Shown piece by piece: positions 577-35,598 of a stretch of DNA of 64,000 nucleotides; the stretch's first letter is position 1, and every line of letters starts with the position of its first letter. A program made the position numbers and the translations under genes. The notes beneath the pieces are model-generated. The model had not been told where the DNA came from. It saw nothing but the letters and a program-made list of their open reading frames with translations, and did no database searches. The stretch is from Kaistia hirudinis (lineage in GTDB: Bacteria > Pseudomonadota > Alphaproteobacteria > Rhizobiales > Kaistiaceae): contig NZ_JACIDS010000002.1 of NCBI RefSeq assembly GCF_014196455.1, positions 186,001-250,000 on the forward strand, in the 5' to 3' direction.

Positions 577-1092
577 GCGGGCGAGGCGCCGGCGCTTTTC
601 CCCTCTCCCTGAGGGAGAGGCCTGACGGCCTTGGCGTCGCCGGGAGCGCAGCGAGCGAGAGGCCTTAGGGCGGCAGGGTGAGGGTTTACGGCCTCGACGA
701 GGAGGGACCGAACGGCGCCGGCTGGCCGCTCCCCTCGACCCGCCGCTGGAGGGCAAATCGAAAACGCCTCGGCGTTTTCGGGGAGGGGGCTGAGTCACCC
801 TCTTCTCCCTCCCCCCTTGTGGGGGAGGGCCGGGGAGGGGGGGGTACCCCGCCGTGACCTCTCCGATCCGTCCTCACGCCAAGCCCCGCACCCCCCCTCT
901 CCAGCTCTCCCCCACAAGGGGGGAGAGGGCAGGCCGTCGCGCTGCATCAACGCCAAGCACGCTTCGGCTGGCGCCGAAGCTACCCAGGCCCAAGGGCTGG
1001 GTGCTTGCGTCCCAAGTGCTGCTCGGGCCCTTGATCCAAACAGAGAAATAGAACATATATAGAACCGAGATGCAATCTGTAGGAGCGGATTC
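577..1092. repeat. Gene-free region with REP-like palindromes
   Basis: I see no credible gene in these 516 bases. There is a perfect 9-bp stem palindrome at 602-620 (CCTCTCCCT-G-AGGGAGAGG). Two inverted copies of a 'CTCCCCC-cttgtg-GGGGGAG' element lie at about 803-840 and 895-932. Related elements occur at 35817-35940 and 39138-39267. The last 60 bases are AT-rich and probably hold the promoter of the next gene. Confidence 0.6.
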
Positions 1093-1578
1093 GTGGACGC
1101 CAACACTATCGCACTCAAGCTCGTGCTCGACGCCGTTGCCGAGCCGACGGAGATTGGCACGGTGATGGATCGATTGCGCCTCCAAAAGGCGATATACTTG
1201 ATTCAGGCCTCTGGTGTGAATTTGGGCTATTCCTATAGTTGGTATGTTCGAGGGCCGTATTCAACAAATCTCACAAAAGACTATTATCGATTGAGTGATG
1301 AACTGAGATCTTCTGCGTCCGAAGTGGAGCAGTACAATCTTAGTCCAGGACTAAATACAGGACTCGCGAAGGCAAAGGATATTTTGAATAAGCCTTCTGG
1401 CGTTGGCTTAGGTGTGCCAAATTGGTATGAATTACTTGCGTCTATTCACTATCTAATGACATATAGTCGTTTAGACTTTGGCAAAATGAAAGAATTGTTG
1501 TCGGCAGAGAAGCCGCATCTGAGAGATTTTATCGACGTGGGCTACAATAGGCTTCGGCAGTGCGGGTATCTTAGCTAA
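1093..1578 (+). CDS. YwgA-like small protein (possible partner of the HD phosphohydrolase)
   Basis: This is a 161-residue protein with a GTG start and a well-placed TAGGAG about 7 bases upstream. Residues 27-58 (RLRLQKAIYLIQ ... YSYSWYVRGPYSTNL) carry the 'LQK-x-IYLL ... YGPYS-x-L' pattern of Bacillus YwgA; the same broad pattern occurs in Panacea/SocA-type antitoxin domains. In B. subtilis ywgA lies next to ywfO, an HD phosphohydrolase gene, and here too an HD gene follows at once in the same frame. No membrane segment or signal peptide is seen. Base composition is clearly AT-richer than the flanking chromosome, suggesting transfer. Its biochemical role is unknown; regulator or antitoxin of the HD enzyme is an inference. 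Confidence 0.6.
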   Translation: MDANTIALKLVLDAVAEPTEIGTVMDRLRLQKAIYLIQASGVNLGYSYSWYVRGPYSTNLTKDYYRLSDELRSSASEVEQYNLSPGLNTGLAKAKDILNKPSGVGLGVPNWYELLASIHYLMTYSRLDFGKMKELLSAEKPHLRDFIDVGYNRLRQCGYLS

Positions 1579-1596
1579 TCGTTGACGAGGTATGGC

Positions 1597-3063
1597 GTGC
1601 TTGACGAATTCTTTCGTAGAAGAATTTCCGATCCCATACACGGGAATATCGGGCTAAGCGACCTTGAGTCAGAGATTGTATCTTCTCGTGCGTTCCAGAG
1701 ACTGCATAATGTTCGTCAGCTTGGGCTGGCGCATCTTGTGTTTCCGGGGGCGGCCTATTCTCGATTTGCTCATTCGGTCGGAGCATGTTATAATGCATCC
1801 AGTATTTTGGAGTCGTTGCAAAGAAATAGTGATATCCAGATAGAAAAAAGCAGGATAATTGCGCTGAGATTGGCTGCGCTAGTCCATGATATCGGGCATT
1901 ATCCATTTTCACATGCTACAGAGCATTTGGTTGTTGATTACTATAAACGAAAAGATCTTCTTTTACAGGTGCGCCCGGCTGAAGCGTTTGTTGAGCGCGG
2001 CGCCGGGGATTTGCCATCCCCCATTGGCGATCTCACCCCCCTGGGGGTAAGTGACCCTCCTGCGTTTGGTCATGAGGATGTCGGCCGGCTGATTGTTTCA
2101 AGCGATTCGGAATTGGCAGAAATTTTCTTGCGTCATGGCTTAGATGCCGCTTTGGTATCCGAGCTATTAGGTAAAGCGATGCCGGAGCCGCTTCTTCCAA
2201 TAATAAGCTCCGATCTTGATTGCGATAGATTGGATTATCTCAACAGAACAGCCCACTTTAGTGGTACACCATACGGATCTGTTGATATTAGATTTCTTGT
2301 AGATCAATCAACGATTGACTGTGAGGGAAAGTTTTGTTTTGAGAATAAGGCGGTTCGGGCAGCTGATCATCTTTTGGTCTCGCGATATTACGATCATTTG
2401 CAGGTTCCGTTTCACAAAACTGTTGCTGCATTAGAATGGAGTCTGACGGAGTCTATCACAGCTCTGATGGACCGGGGCATTGTAGATTTTTCGTCGAGAG
2501 CAATAAGGGCTTCAATCGCTAACGGAATATGGAGGACGTTCGATGACTTCAGTATAATAGAGCGATTTAAAGAGCTGGCGATAAGTCTAGGTTCCAGCGA
2601 TCCAATTCTTAGTGCTCATTTGGAAGCAGTGCTAAACCGGAAGGCAGCAAAACTTTTGGCGGCTTGGGAGGATTTTGCTCCCTTGCTGAATGATGATGCC
2701 TACACACTAACGATCGATGCAGCTGAACGTGCTACCAAAGACGCAGCGACCAAATTCGGCCTCGACTCGAGACGGTTCCGAGTATGGCGGAACACGAAGA
2801 GAATATCTTCTGTGACATCTGGCGACAAGTTGGAGGATCTCGACGATGGGCAACTAGTTGAAGCGATCTTTATAAAGAATTCATTGACTAATCGAGCTGA
2901 ATTACTAGTCTCTCATAGAGAATCGTTGCTCTATCATTTATCAGATAAACGTTATACAGGGGTACGAATATACTATTTACCGGATGCAAATGACTCCCCG
3001 GATCTTCGAGATAAGCTGAGAAAGGAGGTAATTGGCGCGGTAAAAGCGCGGGCAACCTCCTAA
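1597..3063 (+). CDS. HD-domain phosphohydrolase, YwfO/dNTPase-like
   Basis: This encodes a 488-residue protein. GTG 1597 is preferred because GAGG lies 6 bases upstream; an in-frame TTG at 1582 would add five residues. Counting from TTG, it has [11 protein letters not shown] (13-23), a first histidine in RFAHSVG (H64), the HD motif [15 protein letters not shown] (H102/D103) and [12 protein letters not shown], whose aspartate (about D215) would complete the metal site. This is the layout of COG1078 HD enzymes, related to dGTPase/SAMHD1 nucleotide triphosphohydrolases. It follows the YwgA-like gene by 18 bases, so the two are probably co-transcribed. AT-rich composition and codon use set it apart from its neighbours. 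Nucleotide hydrolysis is predicted from the family; a defence role is inference. Confidence 0.8.
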
Positions 3064-3109
3064 TGTCCAAAAGCAAAACGAAACCTAAGCTGCTCGCATC
3101 CTTGCCTCT

Positions 3110-3343
<234 letters not shown>

Positions 3344-3782: not shown

Positions 3783-3877
3783 TGGACAGTTGCGCTATGG
3801 TCCGGTTCCCGCTGTCCCGCGTGAGCGCGGCGTGCCAGATGGCTCGGCTCGCGATCGACCTTAGCGCGGCGGTCGTC

Positions 3878-5131
<1,254 letters not shown>

Positions 5132-5190
5132 GGGGCGCTCGGTTCGTTCAAGGGGCGCTCTTGGGCATAGGTTCGCTCGGCCGGCGCATG

Positions 5191-5706
5191 TCACGCCGTC
5201 CGGCAGCGGGCGCAAAGGCCCCGGATCTCGATCACGGGCGAGCGCGGCGTGAAGGCGGCGGCGCGCGTCACCGCGTCGAGCGCGCCGGCGAGCTCGGCCG
5301 AGGCGGCCTCGGCGGCCGCGCCGCAGGCGTCGCAGAGCAGGAAGACGGTGACGGCGCCGGGATGGCCATGCACCGCCGTGCTGTGCGAGCAGGCGATATA
5401 GGCGTTGCGGCTCTCGATGCGGTGGGCGAAGCCGTGCTCGACGAGAAAATCGAGCGCGCGATAGACGCTGATTGGCGCGGGCCGCGGCCCGGTCAAGGCG
5501 AGGCGGTCGATCACGTCATAGGCGCTGGCGGGAACATGGCTTTCGGCGAGCGCGGCGAGCACCTTGCGGCGCTGGTCGGTGAAGCGCAGGCCCTGCGCGC
5601 TCGACACCGCCTCGGCGCGCGCCATCGCGCCCTCGGCGCAATGCTCGTGGTCGTGCTCGGTGTGCTCCAGCGCGGCGGCGCCGCTCTCGTGCTCGATCGG
5701 TTCCAT
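5191..5706 (-). CDS. Fur-family regulator, Zur-like
   Basis: This is a 171-residue Fur-superfamily repressor. It has a winged-helix region ([15 protein letters not shown] ... [20 protein letters not shown]), then the metal-binding dimerisation domain with two CxxC pairs (CDACG and CARC) that usually hold a structural zinc. The histidines of [10 protein letters not shown] and the two CxxC pairs fit Zur better than Fur. The N-terminus has a His/Glu-rich stretch, HTEHDHEHC, that could bind metal. ATG 5706 is chosen for the GGAAGG just upstream; the frame continues to 5844 without a better start. Specificity for zinc is inferred. Confidence 0.8.
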
Positions 5707-24622: not shown

Positions 24623-25684
24623 ATGGAGCCTTTCTTGACCCAGTCGTCCCTCACCCTGTCCGAGCGTATCGAGAACGTGCTCACCGCCGCCTGCCTCGGC
24701 GATGCGCTCGGCGCGCCGCCGGAGGCGATGTATCCGGGCGACATTCCCGCCGTGTTCGGCGGCCGCATCACGCGCTTCTTCGCGCCGCCGCCCATGGCGC
24801 CGTTCTCGATCGGCTCGGTGCCGGGCTCGCTGACCGACGACGCGACGCAGATGCTCGCCATGGCCGAGATCGTCATCGAATCGAAGGGCCAGCCGACGCT
24901 CGCCGACGCGGCGCGCGGTCTGATCCGCTGGGCGGATGACCCGCGCGGCTTCGGCCGCTTCGCCGGCCCGACGACGCAGGCCGCGATCCTGCGGCTGAAG
25001 GCGGGCGAGGATCCGTCCGTCGTCGCGACGCCGGCGCTCTATTCGGCCTCGATGGGCACGACCAATGGCGCCGCGATGCGCGCGCCCGTCGCCGGCTGCA
25101 TCCGGCCGGGCGATATCGAGGGCGCGGTCGACGTGGCCGCGATCCTCTCGGCGCCGACGCACAATACGCAGATCGCCTGGTCGGGCGCCGGTGCCGTGGC
25201 GGCGGCGATCGCCGCCGGCCTCGCGCGCGACGGCTCGATCTCGATGGCCGATGCGGCGATGGCCGGGGCCGAGGCGGGCGAGAAGCTCGCGGCGAGCCGC
25301 GGCCGTTTCGCGGCCGGGCCGAGCGTCATCCGCCGCCTCGAACTGGCGCTCGCGATTGCCGAACATTTCGAGGGCGATGCCGATGGCGCGATGGAAGAGC
25401 TCGGCGCCGTGATCGGCGCGGGCCTGCCGATGGCCGAGGCTGTGCCGGTGGCCGTCGGCCTCGCCGTCGCGGCGGCGGGCGACCCCTGGGCGGTGATCGT
25501 CGCGGCGGCCAATGCCGGCAATGATTGCGATACGGTCGCCCTCTTCGCCGGCTCGATCGCCGCCGCCTGGACCGACGCGATCGGCGCGCCGGACGACTTG
25601 ATCGCCGAGATGAAGCTCGTCAACGGCCTCGATCTCGGCGCCACGGCGTCGGACCTCGTCGCCGCCTGCGGCCTGAAGGGGTAG
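24623..25684 (+). CDS. ADP-ribosylglycohydrolase family protein
   Basis: A 353-residue all-helical DraG/ARH-type hydrolase. Two metal-binding clusters are visible: SLTDDATQMLAMAE near residue 70-85 and NAGNDCDTVALFAGSIAAAW near 295-315, plus the N-terminal AACLGDALGAPPE. Such enzymes cleave ADP-ribose-protein or N-ribosyl bonds. It follows the PfkB kinase by 30 bases; the pair looks like a salvage unit for a ribosylated compound. Confidence 0.9.
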   Translation: MEPFLTQSSLTLSERIENVLTAACLGDALGAPPEAMYPGDIPAVFGGRITRFFAPPPMAPFSIGSVPGSLTDDATQMLAMAEIVIESKGQPTLADAARGLIRWADDPRGFGRFAGPTTQAAILRLKAGEDPSVVATPALYSASMGTTNGAAMRAPVAGCIRPGDIEGAVDVAAILSAPTHNTQIAWSGAGAVAAAIAAGLARDGSISMADAAMAGAEAGEKLAASRGRFAAGPSVIRRLELALAIAEHFEGDADGAMEELGAVIGAGLPMAEAVPVAVGLAVAAAGDPWAVIVAAANAGNDCDTVALFAGSIAAAWTDAIGAPDDLIAEMKLVNGLDLGATASDLVAACGLKG

Positions 25685-28194: not shown

Positions 28195-28274
28195 GCCGCC
28201 TGCGCTCTGGCAACTGGCCGCCGCCCCGTGCCATGCTGGCGTCAACCATAAAGGGAACGCCAGGGAAGAACGCC

Positions 28275-29114
28275 ATGCAGAAGCTCGTCGTGATGCAATC
28301 GCTGTGGGCGATGGAGCGCCGCCAGCCGGACGGCCTCGAACGCTCGCTCGAGATGAACCTCGAGATGATCGTCGAGGCGCGCTATGGCGGCGTTTCGACC
28401 GACTGGCGCGACCGCGAGACCTCCCGCCGCATCGCCGCCTTCCTGAAGCCGCACGGCCTCGTCGTCGAGGGCCAGTGCTTCCCCAAGACCGTCGATGATT
28501 TGAAAAGCGTGCTGGAGATCGGCACCGAGACCGGGCTGCACCATCTCGACATCCAGCCCGATGTCCGTCCGCGCACGCTCAAAGAATGCATGCCGCTGAT
28601 CGAAGGCTGGACCCGCCTCGCCGAGGAGGTGGATTTCCCGGTCTATATCGAGACGCATCGCGACCGCATGACGACGGACCTCTTCTTCGTCCTCGACCTG
28701 CTCGACGCCTTCCCCAATCTGAAGCTGCTCGGCGATCTCTCGCATTTCCTCGTCGGCCGGGAATTCGCGACGCCGGTGGACGCGACGAACCACGGCTACA
28801 TCCACCGCGTGCTCGACAATTGCTGGGCGCTGCACGGCCGCGTCGCCAGCCGCGAACAGGTGCAGGTCGAAGTCTCCTTCCCGCATCACAAGATGTGGTT
28901 CGACCTTTTCCTCGGCTGGTGGGAATACGGCATCCGCTCGTGGCGCAAGCGCGCCGGCGCGAATGACAGCCTCTCCTTCGTCTGCGAACTCGGGCCCCAG
29001 CCCTACGCCATCGCCGGCCCGGACGGCGCGGACCTCTCCGACCGCTGGAGCGACGCGCTGATCATCCGCGAGGCGGTGGAGAAGCTGTGGGCGCGGATCG
29101 CGGCGGAGGGGTAG
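28275..29114 (+). CDS. Sugar phosphate isomerase/epimerase-like TIM-barrel protein
   Basis: A 279-residue protein resembling the xylose isomerase-like/AP endonuclease-2 TIM barrels: EARYGGVSTDW, HHLDIQPDVRPRTLKECMPLI, FPVYIETHRDRMTTDLFFVL, LKLLGDLSHFLVG and SFVCELGPQPYAI. Glu, His and Asp residues in these strands could bind a divalent metal. The substrate is unknown. A degraded second copy of its last codons lies at 29990-30080, next to the SIR2 gene. Confidence 0.8.
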   Translation: MQKLVVMQSLWAMERRQPDGLERSLEMNLEMIVEARYGGVSTDWRDRETSRRIAAFLKPHGLVVEGQCFPKTVDDLKSVLEIGTETGLHHLDIQPDVRPRTLKECMPLIEGWTRLAEEVDFPVYIETHRDRMTTDLFFVLDLLDAFPNLKLLGDLSHFLVGREFATPVDATNHGYIHRVLDNCWALHGRVASREQVQVEVSFPHHKMWFDLFLGWWEYGIRSWRKRAGANDSLSFVCELGPQPYAIAGPDGADLSDRWSDALIIREAVEKLWARIAAEG

Positions 29115-29285
29115 GGCACCGCCGCGCCATACCCCGCCCCATGCCGCGGGACGAGAGGGGGCATCCGAAAGTATGCCCTTCGAAGAGCTGCGTATGATTG
29201 AGAGAGGCCCCTTCCGGCAGGCACCTTGATGCCCGGCAAAGAGCGCGGCGCACACCGGGTCGCCAGCCGAACGAAGGTAGAAATC

Positions 29286-29840
29286 ATGCAGGTCCTGACC
29301 GACAAGATCCTCTCGCAAGCCGCCTTTTCCGCGGAGATCGACGTCCCGCTCGCAAGCATCGACATCGGCGAATGGCTGTTCAGCCTGCCCGAGGCGGAAT
29401 ATCAGCGCTGCTGCCCGCCGGATCACATCGCCGCCGGTGTGACGACGACGGATGACGGCCGCCGCATGTCGATCAATGTCGAGATGATCGGCACCGGCCT
29501 CGTCGTCCAGCACTATATCGCCGAGGAAGTGACGCCGAGCTATTGCCGGATGAACTCGATCTCCGACGTGTTCACGCCGGCCGGGCGCACGCAGGTCAAC
29601 GTCATCTGGGAGCTGATCGGCGAGGCGATCGAGGGTGGACGCACGCGCTACACCAATCGCGTCACCTCGCACCCGACGGACGCCTTCATGCGCTTCATCG
29701 CCGAGCACGGCCAGACCTTCGAACAGGCGGCCGCCGCGCGCCAGGCCGCCGGCGGCGACCACAACCGCCGCGAAACCCCCCTCTTCGCCGCCTCGATCGC
29801 CCGCCGCGCGGCGGCAAGGCAGCAGAACAAGGCCGCCTGA
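29286..29840 (+). CDS. Conserved hypothetical protein, 184 residues
   Basis: I cannot name this family with confidence. ATG 29286 is used; the frame opens earlier but the sequence before it does not look coding. The central part (MSINVEMIGTGLVVQHYIAEEVTPSYCRM, TQVNVIWELIGEAIEGGRTRYTNRVTSHPTDAFMRF) alternates like a beta-sheet cup with a long helix, reminiscent of SRPBCC-type ligand-binding folds. The last 40 residues are Ala/Arg/Gln-rich and probably disordered. No signal peptide. Composition matches the chromosome, not the SIR2 block. Confidence 0.65.
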   Translation: MQVLTDKILSQAAFSAEIDVPLASIDIGEWLFSLPEAEYQRCCPPDHIAAGVTTTDDGRRMSINVEMIGTGLVVQHYIAEEVTPSYCRMNSISDVFTPAGRTQVNVIWELIGEAIEGGRTRYTNRVTSHPTDAFMRFIAEHGQTFEQAAAARQAAGGDHNRRETPLFAASIARRAAARQQNKAA

Positions 29841-29989
29841 AGGGGCCGCGAGGCGAGGGAGCGGCGAAGCCGCTCCTTCGCGCGGGGCGGTGTGGGGACG
29901 GCTCTGCCCTCCCGCCAGCGGGAACGGCGGGCTCCCCGATGTCAGCGGACCCCCCCGGGAGCCTCCCGCGATTACCCGGCCGATGCGCC

Positions 29990-30080
29990 CATCTCTCAGA
30001 CTACTGGAGTGACGCACTGATCACCCACGAGGCGCGGTGGAGGAGATTTGGGGGAAGGTGGAGAGGGAGGTAAATGGGCG
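29990..30080 (+). pseudogene. Decayed copy of the 3' end of the TIM-barrel gene
   Basis: The frame reads HLSDYWSDALITHEA and, after a 2-base insertion, VEEIWGKVEREVNGRYG. The end of the intact gene (29031-29113) reads DLSDRWSDALIIREAVEKLWARIAAEG. Base similarity is obvious but imperfect. No start codon or upstream portion is present. It marks the left edge of the AT-richer SIR2 block. Confidence 0.75.
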
Positions 30081-30143
30081 CTACGGCTCCCTCATCGACA
30101 TTTTCGACATTACGAGATCAAGATGCTCGATCCACAACGGCCG

Positions 30144-30626
30144 CTATCTTGCGTCCCATCGGCGCTTCAAGGAAGTTAGTCTTTCATCTCTATTCAGCCT
30201 GGTGTCAGCCCGCCCAATTTGCTCCAATATCTCGTCGATCCCATAGGGCCATGCCAACGCGCTATCTGGCAATACTGCGTGAAGAAGTCCCAGCGCCTGC
30301 TCCGGATATCTGTTCACTATATTTTTTCCAGATCGACGAAGTGCTGCGATCATCAAATGGTCACGTTCAATTCTTCCAATGAGCGGCAGGACGAGCGCCG
30401 CTACGGTAGGAAATTGATCTCCGCTTGAGAAAGCCAACTCGCAAAGGCGAGCTGACGTGTTGGGCGATTTGGCTGATAGCTGCCGCGGCCAGATCTCAAG
30501 CAGCGCGGAGAGCTGTCCATCCCATCGCTCAGGCGAATTCTCGTTAGCTTCGTCAGACCACCTTTGAGCCTGCCACAGAACCCGCGATCGAAATTCGTCA
30601 TCGACCGCTAAGAGCAAACGACGCAT
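30144..30626 (-). CDS. C-terminal part of the SIR2 protein, separated by one stop codon
   Basis: This 160-residue frame starts with ATG directly after the TAG of the SIR2 gene and is in the same reading frame. It has no Shine-Dalgarno of its own apart from the preceding coding sequence. The sequence (SARLCELAFSSGDQFPTVAALVLPLI ... YPEQALGLLHAVLPDSALAWPYGIDEILEQIG) is helical and reads as a natural continuation of the SIR2 protein's helical region, giving about 1281 residues if joined. It may be a broken end, a product of stop readthrough, or a separate peptide made by termination-reinitiation. Confidence 0.6.
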   Translation of the reverse strand: MRRLLLAVDDEFRSRVLWQAQRWSDEANENSPERWDGQLSALLEIWPRQLSAKSPNTSARLCELAFSSGDQFPTVAALVLPLIGRIERDHLMIAALRRSGKNIVNRYPEQALGLLHAVLPDSALAWPYGIDEILEQIGRADTRLNRDERLTSLKRRWDAR

Positions 30627-33600
30627 CTAGTCGTTGGAAATGCAACGTTCCCCGGTGGCATCGTCAACACTTGCCCACCCGGCCAAGATAATACCTGCGA
30701 CAAGTCCACCGTAAGACCGGTGCGACGTTAGAGGATTAGCGGCGAACTCCAGCATGTCATTTTTAAGCCTCATATAGAGTCGTCGATTTGGAGTTTTCGC
30801 CCCCCACAAGAAGCCCGCCCATGCCGCATCGCGGTCATCCGTGTCGTCACCATGAAGCAAGGGCAACAACCTTTGCTCCGTCCATTTCGGATCAACAGCG
30901 AAAAACCAGTTGAGTTCGTGGAATAATATCACCATAGAATATCTACGAAGGTCATCTGAAAGGGCCAGAAGGGCCTCAGCATTGGAAAGCCATTCGCGCG
31001 GAAGTCCTTGGTTAATATTCATATTATTCTTACGGGGATCGCCAAAAAGGGCCTCTGAAATCTTTCCTGTAGGTGAATTGATTGCTTCCGTAGTCCAATC
31101 CCGTTCCCTGGAGCCGCGCACGACGCTCCGGCGCCCCTCATTCGGCGATTCACGAAGGATTCCGATCAACTTCTTCAAAACGCGGTCGAAAACAGGAAGG
31201 CATTCAATGTTCAGTTTCGAGCTGGCGTCCCGAAGCCAATCGGTCGTAGGGTTGAGGATCTTTGCAAGCCGCTCATTTGGACAGCGAGCTAGTCGTTCGG
31301 CGATCAGCCAGACCAGTCTTTCCTTGTCATTCTTCCGTGACTCTGAATTGAGGAACCGTGTCCATGCCCACTCTGGAAAGTCGCCTTGCTTTGCTGCGTA
31401 GGTGAGTGCTGCAAAAGCGCGCGCAGGGCGTTGAGCGGCCAGACCGGCAAAAGGATCGTTCTTGATGAAAAAATCGTCTGATCGACCCCCACGCTCCTTG
31501 GCTTGCAGCAGCACCGTCGAAAGGGGGGTGTCCACCAGTTCCTCAAAGCTGGTGTCGGTCTTGACCCATCCTGTCCGACCCTCCAACGAAGCAGCCGCCT
31601 TCGCTCCGTAATCCTCTTTCCAGTTGGGCACCACAACGCGGAGCAGCTTCGCTTGCCCACGGGCGATGGCAGATAGCTTGCATCCAGATATCTGAAGCCA
31701 ATGAACTCGATTCAGAATTGACGAAGCTCGCCTGCTTTCGAATGCCGTTACCTTCTCCCCGCGCCATCGTTTAGGGCCGCGCAACAGCTTCTTCTCCAGT
31801 AACCTACGCGAGGTGGCGTTGAGCTTCTTCCATCTACCCGCAAGGACGAGCAAAAGATCCCTCTGGTGATGGATGTCCCAGAATGCGGAATAGCTCAAAG
31901 AGGCTATTATTTTCTCAAAATTATCATCGGGTACGACACTTCTATTCCCTGCCGCCCATATTCGCAGTCGCGCGAAGATTGTGTCATCGTCCGGAGACCA
32001 TGATTGAAATTCGCGCCTAGCGGCTGATTTATCTATTTCAACTAGATGCGAAAAGAGTTCCGAAAATCGAATAATCGCAGCGGAAAGCCCATGCGTTCGA
32101 TTAAATGCGGCCTCCTCGATGCCGTCCGGAAATAGTGGACTTATATTGCTAAGGCCGTAACCACCAATTTCTTGCTCGAGTACAAGGGCCAGCTCAAGAT
32201 TTTGTCGTAGGACTTTCACGACAGTAGCACACCACTCGTTCGGAACACTGACTGCTTCGTGCGTTTCAGGATAATTGACGTCCATCCGCAGCAAGCGACG
32301 ACCCTGCTTGTCATCGCTCCCGAGTTCGGGCGGCTTTGGGCCATGCCAGAAATCTGGTCCGGCAGAGAGGCTAGGTCGAAGTATTTCCCCAAATCGTCGT
32401 ACGACAGTACTACTCCACCCGTCTGCCTCAATGGCGGTCTGCAAGGCATCCCAATCGCTGTCGACGTCGTTGACGTGATTCCAAACCTCAAAAAGCGACC
32501 GCCAATCGGTACGAATGTCTTGACTGATATGGCGATCGTTTCGTTCTAGCTCCCGTGAGATGCGTTCTTGAATGCTCTGATGAAGTGAGATCTGGTGAGC
32601 AGCCCACCACACAGCGGCAGGCTGGTCGCAGACCCTTGCGAGCCATACGCCCAGTTGATCTATTCGTGGGACAAGACGTGGGGAATTTTTAGCCCAATAT
32701 CCGCGAAGCGTTGCAAGATTACCATCGCGGATCGATGCTTGATCAACACGATTAAGTTCGAAGGCGTCCCACGCATCGGACGGCACCTCGCGCTTGGCAT
32801 AATAGTCGTCAGGGTCAGATTTGGTCGGCGGGATATCTGAATCGAGGCCGTATAGTTCGAACGGATCAACATAGGGTCCTTTGCGACCAAACGAACCTGA
32901 ATTGCCCGCCTTTGCAAATCGACGATATTTGTCGAACACACAAAGCCATTCAGCGGAGGGAAGAACCTCCCCGACGCAGAACCTCTTCACGCCTTCGTAG
33001 GTTGAAACGACATGCGCTACTTGACCTCGCTCATGCGGCTGAATTGCTGCAGGCCCCTTCTTGGATGCGTCAATGCCCTTTGCATACCAATCATCGGGAT
33101 CACGGGCACGTTCTGCCCACGCCTCAAGGGACTGCCATAGAGCAGCATGCTCATCGTCTGGACTATATGGTATGGCTTCCACACCCTTGTGTCGCCACCG
33201 TGCAGCAGCATCGATGTGGTGACCAGACTGAAAGGCGTAAGCGCTTTCAAGCCTCCCCGAGGTCCTGCGCAGCGCTTCAAGGAGATACTGCACGGGAGGA
33301 TCGTCAGCCGTATAACCAATGAATGCGACCACATATTTGCTAAGTATTTCTCGAATAAATGTCGTTGCCCATCCGTCCGACAAATACGCTCGGCCAAATG
33401 CGGAACTCGAGAGAACAAAGCCGTCGCCCTCCGCGCCTGTATAATTCGGCGTGGCTCGGCCATGTAGGTATACAATTCCGTTGATATCATTCGGGCGCAG
33501 AGGGTCTGGTAACCTTGGCGGTTGCCATGCCTGAAGGTCGCTCCCACAATCGTTAAACAATCTGTCAAAGTTCGTTGTAACTAATTGAACCGCGCCGTCG

Positions 33601-33989
33601 GGCGTGGTTGCCAAATCTAGCAAGATCCTATGCGCGGTCAGATCGCATTCTGGAGGCGGCTTCAGCGCGAAGGCAACAGCCTCCTCAATGTCGCGCGAGG
33701 CAAAGTCTCTTTCCAGAAGTCCGAAAATACGGTCGGCCGATATCACACCGGAAATACCAACGCGTCGGTCTATTTCTTGGGCTTCTTGGATAAGCTTGTA
33801 GGCTGGGCTGTCTTGATCAACTCCAAGCTTAGACACGACCTTACGAGCCAAGCCAAAGAAATCAGGGAGATTCGCGCGCGCTCTCGATACTCCAGCTCCG
33901 CAAAAGAAGATTACGCGCCCCTGGTCGCGGGCAAGAAGGAGGTCATCTGGAATTGGGGGGCCATCGGCCAGGAACCGCAATTCTCGCAC
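30627..33989 (-). CDS. Very large SIR2-domain protein, probable NAD-degrading defence protein
   Basis: A 1120-residue protein. Residues 1-250 form a SIR2-like domain: VIFFCGAGVS (27-35), TTNFDRL with N140, YLHGR with H176, and GYTADDPP (225-232); the asparagine and histidine usually needed for NAD cleavage are present. The remaining ~870 residues are mostly helical, without recognised motif. This layout resembles DSR1-type defence sirtuins, which drain NAD during phage infection. The start is GTG 33989 (an in-frame stop lies just upstream). TAG at 30627-30629 is followed at once by ATG and 160 more codons in frame. The gene is AT-richer than both neighbours and has no nearby partner gene. Confidence 0.85.
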   Translation of the reverse strand: MRELRFLADGPPIPDDLLLARDQGRVIFFCGAGVSRARANLPDFFGLARKVVSKLGVDQDSPAYKLIQEAQEIDRRVGISGVISADRIFGLLERDFASRDIEEAVAFALKPPPECDLTAHRILLDLATTPDGAVQLVTTNFDRLFNDCGSDLQAWQPPRLPDPLRPNDINGIVYLHGRATPNYTGAEGDGFVLSSSAFGRAYLSDGWATTFIREILSKYVVAFIGYTADDPPVQYLLEALRRTSGRLESAYAFQSGHHIDAAARWRHKGVEAIPYSPDDEHAALWQSLEAWAERARDPDDWYAKGIDASKKGPAAIQPHERGQVAHVVSTYEGVKRFCVGEVLPSAEWLCVFDKYRRFAKAGNSGSFGRKGPYVDPFELYGLDSDIPPTKSDPDDYYAKREVPSDAWDAFELNRVDQASIRDGNLATLRGYWAKNSPRLVPRIDQLGVWLARVCDQPAAVWWAAHQISLHQSIQERISRELERNDRHISQDIRTDWRSLFEVWNHVNDVDSDWDALQTAIEADGWSSTVVRRFGEILRPSLSAGPDFWHGPKPPELGSDDKQGRRLLRMDVNYPETHEAVSVPNEWCATVVKVLRQNLELALVLEQEIGGYGLSNISPLFPDGIEEAAFNRTHGLSAAIIRFSELFSHLVEIDKSAARREFQSWSPDDDTIFARLRIWAAGNRSVVPDDNFEKIIASLSYSAFWDIHHQRDLLLVLAGRWKKLNATSRRLLEKKLLRGPKRWRGEKVTAFESRRASSILNRVHWLQISGCKLSAIARGQAKLLRVVVPNWKEDYGAKAAASLEGRTGWVKTDTSFEELVDTPLSTVLLQAKERGGRSDDFFIKNDPFAGLAAQRPARAFAALTYAAKQGDFPEWAWTRFLNSESRKNDKERLVWLIAERLARCPNERLAKILNPTTDWLRDASSKLNIECLPVFDRVLKKLIGILRESPNEGRRSVVRGSRERDWTTEAINSPTGKISEALFGDPRKNNMNINQGLPREWLSNAEALLALSDDLRRYSMVILFHELNWFFAVDPKWTEQRLLPLLHGDDTDDRDAAWAGFLWGAKTPNRRLYMRLKNDMLEFAANPLTSHRSYGGLVAGIILAGWASVDDATGERCISND

Positions 33990-34227
33990 TCCCTCTTCTC
34001 AATCCAGTCATGACGGTACGTCTGGCTGACCAGATCACGAAATATCGAAATGTCCAATTGTCGATCGGTAGATATCCATGGCCTCAGCAGCCGAACTCGG
34101 AAGTAGCTAGGATTCTGAGTGGGCGCGGAACCCGCCTCATGCGATTTGATCTCTCTCTTGCACAGTCACGGGCGAAGGTACTTCCTGGGCCTAAAACAGC
34201 CGAGTCCCCTTGCCCCATCCCCAAACT
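33990..34227. other. Gene-free spacer upstream of the SIR2 gene
   Basis: About 240 bases of moderately AT-rich sequence separate the divergent SIR2 and binding-protein genes. The one open frame across it (plus strand) starts inside the SIR2 gene and has no Shine-Dalgarno or recognisable content. It should hold the SIR2 promoter, but I cannot pick -35/-10 boxes with confidence. Confidence 0.5.
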
Positions 34228-34237: not shown

Positions 34238-34302
34238 TCCCTACGTCATAAGGAGCCGTGCCCCTAGAAACGGGGTGCTGGTGTCAGGGAAAGAGGGACT
34301 TC

Positions 34303-35598
34303 ATGACGATCAGACCTTTTGCGGGGGCGTTTCTGGGCGTGGCGCTCGCGGCTTTGTCGGTGGGTGCGGCTTTTGCCGAGGATGTCACGGTTTCGTTCCT
34401 GACGCACTGGCCGCCGGAGACGGTGGCGAAGCTGGAGGCCGCGGCGGCGGCCTATTCCAAGGACCATCCGGATGTGAAGGTCGAGGTGCGCGCCGTTCCC
34501 TTCGGCGACCTTCTGACCACGTTGCGTTCGCAGGCCGGCCAGGCCGGCGGGCCGACGATCACCGGCATCTATGACCTCTGGCTGCCGGAGCTGGTGCGCG
34601 ACAAGCTGGTCAACGCCGCGCCGGAGGCCAATGCCTCGGACGTTTCGACCAACTGGCCGAAGGGCGTCGCGAGCGCTGCGAGCGTCGGCGGCTCGGTCTA
34701 TGGCTATCCGAACGAGATCGACGTCTACGCGCTGAATTACAACAAGAAGCTGTTCGAGGAAGCCGGCATCAAGGACGCGCCGAAGACCTGGGACGAGTTC
34801 GTCGCGGCGGCCGAGAAGCTGACCAACAAGGACAAGGGCCAGCATGGTTTCGGCCTGATCAATTCCTGGGCGGCGGGCGTCGTGCACCCCTTCGCCTCGC
34901 TGCTGGCCTCGAATGGCGGCGCGCTCGTCGTGGACGGCAAGCCGGCGCTCGACAGCGAGAACGCGGCCGAGACCTTCGCGCTCTATGAGAAGCTGGTGAA
35001 GTCCGGCGCCTCGGTGCCCGAGATGGGCACGGCCGACGCGAACACCACCGGGCCGTTCCTCGACAATTTCGTCTCCGGCAAGACCGGCATGATCATCATG
35101 GCGAACTGGTGGGAATCGGCGCTTAAGGCGGGCATGGGCGACAAGTTCGCCGATATCGCCACCGCGCCGATCCCCGTCGGCCCCAAGGGCGATGGCCCGC
35201 ATTCGATCTCCTATTCCTGGATGACCGTCGTCTCGGACGGCGCCTCAGACGCGGAGAAGAAGGCGGCGTGGGATTTCCTTGCCTGGCTGAACGGCCCGAC
35301 CTCGGGCGAGAAGGGCGCCTCCGCCATGGGCGATTTGCTGCAGTCCATGGGCATCCTGCCGTCGCGCAGCTCCGACGTCGCGGCCTTCGCCGACCGGCTG
35401 AAGACGCCGTTCCTCGCCGGCTATGTCGACGTGCTCAACGAGGCGCGGCCGTTCCCGACCGTGCTCGGCGGGCAGGAATTTACCGAGTCGCTGCAGAGCC
35501 ATATCGAGGCGCTGGAGTTCGGCAAGGAAACCGCCACTGACGCCCAGAAGGGCGCGCAGGCCGACGCCGCCGCGATCCTCGAAAAGGCCGCGAAGTAA
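34303..35598 (+). CDS. ABC sugar transporter, periplasmic binding protein
   Basis: A 431-residue extracellular solute-binding protein, family 1 (MalE-like). Signal peptide MTIRPFAGAFLGVALAALSVGAAFAED; the mature part has THWPPETVAKLEAAAAAYSKDHPDVKVEV, YGYPNEIDVYALNYNKKLFEEAGI and TWDEFVAAAEKLT, all typical. ATG 34303 follows GAGGGA. It serves the permeases at 35941-37733. The likely substrate is a carbohydrate; cluster context suggests an amino sugar or glycan fragment. Confidence 0.9.
   Translation: MTIRPFAGAFLGVALAALSVGAAFAEDVTVSFLTHWPPETVAKLEAAAAAYSKDHPDVKVEVRAVPFGDLLTTLRSQAGQAGGPTITGIYDLWLPELVRDKLVNAAPEANASDVSTNWPKGVASAASVGGSVYGYPNEIDVYALNYNKKLFEEAGIKDAPKTWDEFVAAAEKLTNKDKGQHGFGLINSWAAGVVHPFASLLASNGGALVVDGKPALDSENAAETFALYEKLVKSGASVPEMGTADANTTGPFLDNFVSGKTGMIIMANWWESALKAGMGDKFADIATAPIPVGPKGDGPHSISYSWMTVVSDGASDAEKKAAWDFLAWLNGPTSGEKGASAMGDLLQSMGILPSRSSDVAAFADRLKTPFLAGYVDVLNEARPFPTVLGGQEFTESLQSHIEALEFGKETATDAQKGAQADAAAILEKAAK

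What the first reader, a model, noticed from the sequence alone, without database searches (positions are those of the whole stretch)
30144..33989. Giant SIR2-domain protein in an AT-rich block: candidate NAD-depleting phage defence gene
Seen: a SIR2 domain with GAGVS, N140 (TTNFD), H176 (YLHG) and GYTADDPP, fused to roughly 870-1030 mostly helical residues without known domains; composition differs from the sugar-metabolism genes on both sides. Known: DSR1-type and related SIR2 defence proteins have this N-terminal NADase plus long C-terminal sensor layout. Inferred: single-gene abortive-infection system. Low similarity of the sensor region to anything I recognise suggests a new subgroup.
Basis: partly seen in the sequence, partly recalled or inferred. 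Interest (0 to 1): 0.72.

Follow-up and report, generated by a model that had tools for sequence, protein, structure and literature searches.

The report
Interrupted DSR1-like anti-phage sirtuin gene
A bacterium carries a horizontally acquired relative of a known single-gene anti-phage NAD-cleaving defence, but a stop codon cuts off the last eighth of the protein, so this copy is probably broken or altered.

Summary
The SIR2 domain, its motifs and the AT-rich block are real. The claimed 1281-residue chain is not: an in-frame TAG at 30627-30629 (codon 1121) splits the frame into 1120 + 160 residues. Both pieces match Dsr1 models in order, and ten distinct relatives read straight through that codon. 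The gene belongs to a proteobacterial sister clade of DSR1: 68-78% identical to its closest kin, 23-26% to five NCBI-named Dsr1; two intact close kin also score far below NCBI's Dsr1 cut-off. Tree, composition and occurrence in 2 of 14 genomes of the genus point to horizontal acquisition. The post-stop segment kept a low dN/dS on the window branch, so the stop is probably recent. Most likely: a DSR1-like NADase defence gene recently crippled by a nonsense mutation that removes about twelve predicted sensor helices. One relative (G360) is also broken about seven codons away, apparently by an insertion; this may be chance. A sequencing error cannot be excluded.

The parts
30627..33989 (-). DSR1-like ORF as it stands: 1120 aa from GTG 33989; the start may instead be the TTG at 33980 (residue 4), where homology to most relatives begins
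   Evidence: L001's ORF starts with TTG at exactly this residue
33090..33980 (-). SIR2 domain, residues 4-300, with CGAGVS, TTNFD (N140), YLHG (H176), GYTADDPP
   Evidence: Pfam SIR2_2 at residues 136-273, E 5.2e-14; motifs aligned in 23 rows
30630..33089 (-). sensor region up to the stop, residues 301-1120, predicted mostly helical
   Evidence: identities; hhalign with Dsr1 sensors E 6.8e-39; low-confidence models
30627..30629 (-). in-frame TAG at codon 1121 that interrupts the gene
   Evidence: ten distinct relatives have one open frame across this position
30144..30626 (-). remainder of the gene: 160 codons plus the natural stop; last part of the sensor; begins with an ATG whose Met is conserved in the six relatives aligned
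   Evidence: matches Dsr1 profile 1126-1259, E 1e-15, and PADLOC Dsr1, E 1.5e-14; 67-79% identical to five close relatives, 48% to L004; Met:
29116..34205 (.). stretch between two conserved flanking genes that has no counterpart in G004, the congener with the most similar flanks, which holds about 4.8 kb of other sequence there
   Evidence: blastn of the window against L043; ORFs of L043
29975..30052 (+). degraded second copy of the 3' end (29018-29091) of the flank gene 28233-29114, about 90 bases from the end of the DSR1-like gene: possible scar of insertion
   Evidence: local alignment score 64, reached by 0 of 973 random stretches of the window
34258..35598 (+). flank: ABC transporter substrate-binding protein
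   Evidence: PF01547, PF13416
28233..29114 (+). flank: conserved chromosomal gene; looks like a sugar-phosphate isomerase/epimerase (name recalled, from no call)
   Evidence: DNA matches in 14 of 14 genomes of the genus, some perhaps paralogues; no Pfam match
29226..29840 (+). small conserved protein of unknown family between the flank gene and the DSR1-like gene
   Evidence: 74-76% protein identity to loci in two congeners; no Pfam match

Best explanation
This is a horizontally acquired gene of a proteobacterial sister clade of DSR1. In intact members the N-terminal SIR2 domain would cleave NAD+ when the long helical C-terminal sensor is engaged by a phage product (inferred by analogy with DSR1 and DSR2). 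In this genome a recent nonsense mutation at codon 1121 removes the last 160 residues of the sensor. The most likely outcome is an inert or badly impaired protein: the SIR2 domain is untouched, but sensing and assembly probably fail. Shown: homology, interruption, uninterrupted relatives, conservation of the lost part, a tree at odds with the genus. Inferred: NADase activity, phage trigger, recency, loss of function.
For: Dsr1 models match both pieces in the right order. The catalytic motifs are kept. The sensor is homologous to Dsr1 sensors. The tree joins the gene to L044 of another family of the order (98/96), with Billgrantia and Pleomorphomonas copies in the same 100/100 group and the congeneric K. 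granuli copy outside it. 2 of 14 genomes of the genus have it. Gene GC is 0.49-0.54 in six loci whose surroundings range from 0.50 to 0.68 (window GC). Ten distinct relatives read through the stop position, and identity is alike before and after it, e.g. 78.2/79.4% and 73.6/75.6%. Window-branch dN/dS after the stop is 0.23. In DSR2, H2-H4 take part in dimer formation, DSAD1 binds H3 and H4, a tail-tube loop enters the C-terminal ring, and SIR2 alone was not active with the trigger (PMC10973363, PMC11087589; passages).
Against: I found no experiment on this clade in the listings. The trigger is unknown. The frame shows no other lesion, so the short protein might still work. The Met right after the stop could allow a second chain. 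A base-calling error would make the gene intact. One DSR2 paper assigns the dimer to SIR2 and the middle domain rather than the last domain (PMC11087589). Models were weak (mean pLDDT 47.2 and 62.6) and the fold search showed generic helical solenoids, no DSR2 in the 50 rows listed.
Confidence: 0.7

Rival explanations
1. The stop is a sequencing or assembly error and the gene is intact and functional.
For: The rest of the frame is undamaged and post-stop dN/dS is low.
Against: Nothing points to a poor assembly: 14 contigs, completeness 100, contamination 2.99. No reads were available, so this is weak evidence.
Confidence: 0.15
2. The shortened 1120-residue protein is functional by itself, the last sensor block being dispensable or its loss changing the trigger range.
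For: The break lies just after a predicted inter-helix loop, so the upstream part could fold. G360 has a break about seven codons away.
Against: The last 160 residues are present in ten distinct relatives, over 80% or more of their length in 23 plasmid records, several of them near-copies, and in E. coli Dsr1. Post-stop dN/dS on the window branch shows past selection for them.
Confidence: 0.1
3. Split protein: ribosomes re-start at the ATG that directly follows the TAG, so the 160-residue tail is made as a separate chain that joins the main one.
For: TAG is directly followed by ATG; the tail is conserved and still open.
Against: That Met is present in the six aligned relatives, so it did not arise as a start. 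I see no clear ribosome-binding site before it (by eye).
Confidence: 0.05
4. A housekeeping sirtuin deacylase.
For: A SIR2 domain is present.
Against: Best families are SIR2_2 and Dsr1, the chain is co-linear with Dsr1, and 12 of 14 genomes of the genus lack it.
Confidence: 0.01

Closest known systems
DSR1 (defense-associated sirtuin 1; NCBIfam NF041818, PADLOC PDLC02183 and PDLC04167)
   Same: Relatives of the same length class (1194-1280 residues in the 22 other rows), same order of SIR2 and sensor, catalytic motifs kept, sensors homologous; single gene
   Different: SIR2 35-38% and sensor 18-24% identical to five NCBI-named Dsr1. Against the cut-off of 1400 bits, four proteins outside that group score 307-447, two of them close kin of the window gene, and three NCBI-named Dsr1 score 1424-2088. 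This copy is interrupted
DSR2 (Bacillus subtilis)
   Same: SIR2 domain with Asn/His pair plus long helical C-terminal sensor (papers' passages)
   Different: No DSR2 chain matched the family profile by sequence and none is in the 50 fold-search rows listed; DSR2 has 1005 residues
ThsA (Thoeris), SIR2-APAZ/Ago, Sir2-HerA
   Same: SIR2 effector domain (passages)
   Different: Thoeris and SIR2-APAZ/Ago are two-gene systems; no partner gene was recognised beside this one

Membership tests
DSR1, strict (NCBIfam NF041818 equivalog) | score above the curated cut-off of 1400 bits | tested here: not met
   window 360 and 57 bits for the two pieces; intact kin L001 420 and L006 447
DSR1, broad sense (PADLOC Dsr1 models) | significant match to Dsr1 models at both ends of the chain, in order | tested here: met
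   (1.5e-81 and 1.5e-14); intact kin
DSR1, broad sense | SIR2 catalytic Asn and His | tested here: met
   N140 and H176
DSR1, broad sense | sensor homologous to the Dsr1 sensor | tested here: met
   hhalign probability 100, E 6.8e-39, 867 columns
DSR1, broad sense | uninterrupted chain of about 1200-1280 residues | tested here: not met
   TAG at codon 1121
DSR1, broad sense | anti-phage activity with NAD+ loss | not testable with these tools
   needs phage challenge and NAD assay
DSR2 | sequence or fold match to solved DSR2 | tested here: inconclusive
   no sequence match; models too weak, only generic solenoids listed

The most novel reading that the evidence does not exclude
The last sensor block of this DSR1-like clade is a separable module: breaks at its edge (the stop here, an apparent insertion in G360) leave two parts that act together as a split system, or change what the sensor recognises.
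Probability: 0.06. Interest if true: 0.6.

Novelty: new member of a known kind. Interest (0 to 1): 0.3.

Why it matters
It extends DSR1 to a divergent proteobacterial clade that NCBI's Dsr1 model does not name, with kin on plasmids (22 of 59 matching records typed conjugative) and in distant hosts, and whose trigger is unknown. The broken copy is a caution: a defence gene that looks complete on reading can carry a stop. If the stop is real, it is a natural case of recent loss of a phage-defence gene.

Tried and rejected
Housekeeping sirtuin: rejected. Recombination between alleles: nucleotide identity to L044 is 81-94% in eight blocks before residue 484 and 66-83% in the blocks after it; third-position differences give only p = 0.02 uncorrected, and a control pair, L001-L002, gives 0.041; trees of the parts are poorly supported. 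A hint only. Faster change of sensor residues 301-1120 on the window branch (rounded 100 N / 62 S against 52 N / 62 S on the L044 branch, Fisher p = 0.0098) has the same caveat, and no such excess is seen after the stop (p = 0.60). Structure: mean pLDDT 47.2 and 62.6; fold search of the better model listed generic solenoids. Phage records: no match; viral contigs: no relative, with only two peptide patterns. Promoter and terminator scans found no excess over shuffles. The first PDB search gave three MHC chains at E 0.006, taken as chance; the family profile matched KomC SIR2 over 45 positions only. Literature: DSR1 with related words and Kaistia with SIR2 (0 papers); no paper on this clade stood in those listings. 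A neighbourhood of L044 was fetched (L107) and not analysed beyond its ORF list.
Full report
Observation. Translation gives 1120 residues, a TAG at 30627-30629, then 160 residues and the natural TAG at 30144-30146. The start may be the TTG at residue 4: homology to most relatives begins there and L001's ORF starts there. GC is 0.535 against 0.62-0.73 in the kilobases on either side.

Identity. Pfam finds SIR2_2 only (E 5.2e-14). NCBIfam finds Dsr1 for both pieces (E 2.6e-107 and 1e-15), and so does PADLOC (1.5e-81 and 1.5e-14), in the right order along the models. In an alignment of 23 rows, the window included, GAGVS or GAGIS is kept in 22 of 23 (one annotated ORF begins downstream of it), TTNFD in 22 of 23 (one TTNFE) and the histidine of LHG or IHG in 23 of 23. 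Sensor identity to five NCBI-named Dsr1 is 18-24%, yet profile comparison of the sensors gives probability 100 and E 6.8e-39 over 867 columns. That N140 and H176 match DSR2's N133 and H171 rests on the motif and on a paper's statement that the pair is conserved in DSR1 (PMC11087589, passage); I did not align DSR2.

A sister clade. Against the NCBI Dsr1 model (cut-off 1400 bits) three NCBI-named Dsr1 score 1424-2088 and four proteins outside that group score 307-447, two of them close kin of the window gene. In the tree five NCBI-named Dsr1 form one group (100/100) and 17 rows with the window gene another (99/99). The two are parted by long branches, and one very long row, Burkholderia, has no sure place. 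Of the 13 plasmid regions fetched, NCBI calls the eight outside the Dsr1 group 'SIR2 family protein'.

Spread. The nearest row is L044, from another family of the order (78% identity, 98/96). Copies from Billgrantia (a gammaproteobacterium) and Pleomorphomonas fall in the same 100/100 group, and the Kaistia granuli copy lies outside it. I take the window's genus to be Kaistia because G003, a same-genus genome, has a contig of the same length as the K. granuli one, with the same match. Counts with the window's own genome included: 2 of 14 genomes of the genus; 20 of 397 in a sample of the order at E 1e-20, several of them SIR2-only matches; 9 of 385 in a class sample and 14 of 398 in a phylum sample, both at E 1e-40. 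In plasmids 59 records match, 25 of them over at least 80% of the query. None of 50,697 phage records matched. A viral-contig scan with two peptide patterns gave no relative. The gene keeps GC 0.49-0.54 in six loci while the sequence around it ranges from 0.50 to 0.68.

Site. The gene is convergent with a small conserved gene (29226-29840) and divergent from a substrate-binding protein gene (34258-35598). G004, the congener with the most similar flanks, has the same outer flanks but about 4.8 kb of different sequence between them. A degraded second copy (29975-30052) of the end of the flank gene (29018-29091) lies about 90 bases from the end of the DSR1-like gene; its alignment score of 64 was reached by 0 of 973 random stretches of the window. 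This may be a scar of insertion. The AT-rich block at 1001-3063 likewise lies beside a second copy of an ispG end. I did not test whether the two share a mechanism, and no integrase or transposase was recognised. Of the neighbours tested in close kin (five proteins; ten), those with Pfam names near the K. granuli and Pleomorphomonas copies look ordinary; the Billgrantia copy has a helicase with DUF2726 nearby, which could be defence. By annotation, two of the 13 plasmid regions show known defence genes close by: Shedu in Cupriavidus and restriction genes around an E. coli Dsr1.

The stop. Of 26 loci tested, one is the window's own and three are second copies (L008, L045, L046). Of the 22 others, ten have one open frame across the stop position (L001, L002, L003, L004, L006, L009, L044, L048, L049, L050; L002 lacks its 5' end), L047 breaks near it, and eleven (L051-L061) are held too short or match too distantly to test. 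The 13 plasmid homologues are each open over the 1194-1280 codons read. Identity before and after the stop is alike in close kin. On the window branch dN/dS is 0.13 in SIR2, 0.49 and 0.50 in the two sensor blocks before the stop and 0.23 after it; on the L044 branch it is 0.14, 0.16, 0.36 and 0.16. With an earlier dN/dS of 0.10-0.23, a stop as old as 40% of the branch is disfavoured (P 0.004-0.03). These are parsimony counts on about 39 changes with possible recombination, so they are rough.

A second break. In G360 the family profile matches 1-1111 at the start of contig C6 and 1112-1277 at the end of contig C1, with sequence at both edges that by eye is not of the gene. One edge looks like the end of an IS630-type transposase; that name is recalled and untested. 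Window codon 1121 is profile position 1118, so the breaks lie about seven codons apart. One random break would fall within seven codons of another about 1% of the time, but I noticed this after the fact. Two distant SIR2 relatives with stops (G237, TGA; G1066, TAA) are broken elsewhere.

What the lost part may do. In the model of a relative's sensor (mean pLDDT 62.6) the stop falls at the start of a helix after a loop, and twelve helices follow from there; 15 of the 17 ten-residue blocks there have pLDDT 70 or more, the others 55 and 65. In DSR2, H2-H4 take part in dimer formation, DSAD1 binds H3 and H4, and SIR2 alone was not active with the trigger (PMC10973363, passages); a tail-tube loop enters the C-terminal ring, while the dimer is assigned to SIR2 and the middle domain (PMC11087589, passages). 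By analogy the shortened protein would be inert rather than always on. This is inference.

Mechanism and its limits. For intact members the likely mechanism is NAD+ cleavage by SIR2 on sensing a phage protein; the trigger is unknown. A review states that DSR1 stops phage without cell death (PMC10952713, passages), so 'abortive' should not be assumed. Nothing here tests NADase activity or protection.

Verdict. A real DSR1-like gene of a divergent clade, horizontally acquired, interrupted by an in-frame stop that is probably recent. A new member of a known kind, of modest interest.

Noticed in passing
window 3106-3343 and 3877-4114: The 3' end of ispG (GcpE, 3878-5215 -) has a second copy (238 nt, 95%) beside an AT-rich block (GC about 0.465 over 1001-3000), as an element inserting at a gene's end might leave.
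   Followed up: partly
window 29018-29091 and 29975-30052: A degraded second copy of a gene's 3' end also lies beside the DSR1-like gene: intact gene end, spacer with a small ORF, second end copy, then AT-rich cargo, the same order as at ispG.
   Followed up: partly
window 1093-1578 + and 1582-3063 +: Cargo of the ispG block: a 161-aa protein with a PADLOC DarG match over 72 residues (3.5e-7) and an HD-domain protein with a dGTPase match (1.1e-7): possible second defence or toxin-antitoxin pair.
   Followed up: partly
window 29116-34205; L043 5737-10580: Variable site: G004 carries other ORFs between the same flanks (a Crp-like regulator, glycosyltransferase-like and methyltransferase-like, named by eye only).
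   Followed up: partly
L047 1-130; L106 2000-2124: The G360 copy of the DSR1-like gene is split at two contig ends about seven codons from the window's stop position, apparently by an insertion sequence.
   Followed up: partly
window 24623-25684 +: ADP-ribosylglycohydrolase family gene (PF03747, 4.8e-44) beside a PfkB kinase in the sugar cluster.
   Followed up: no
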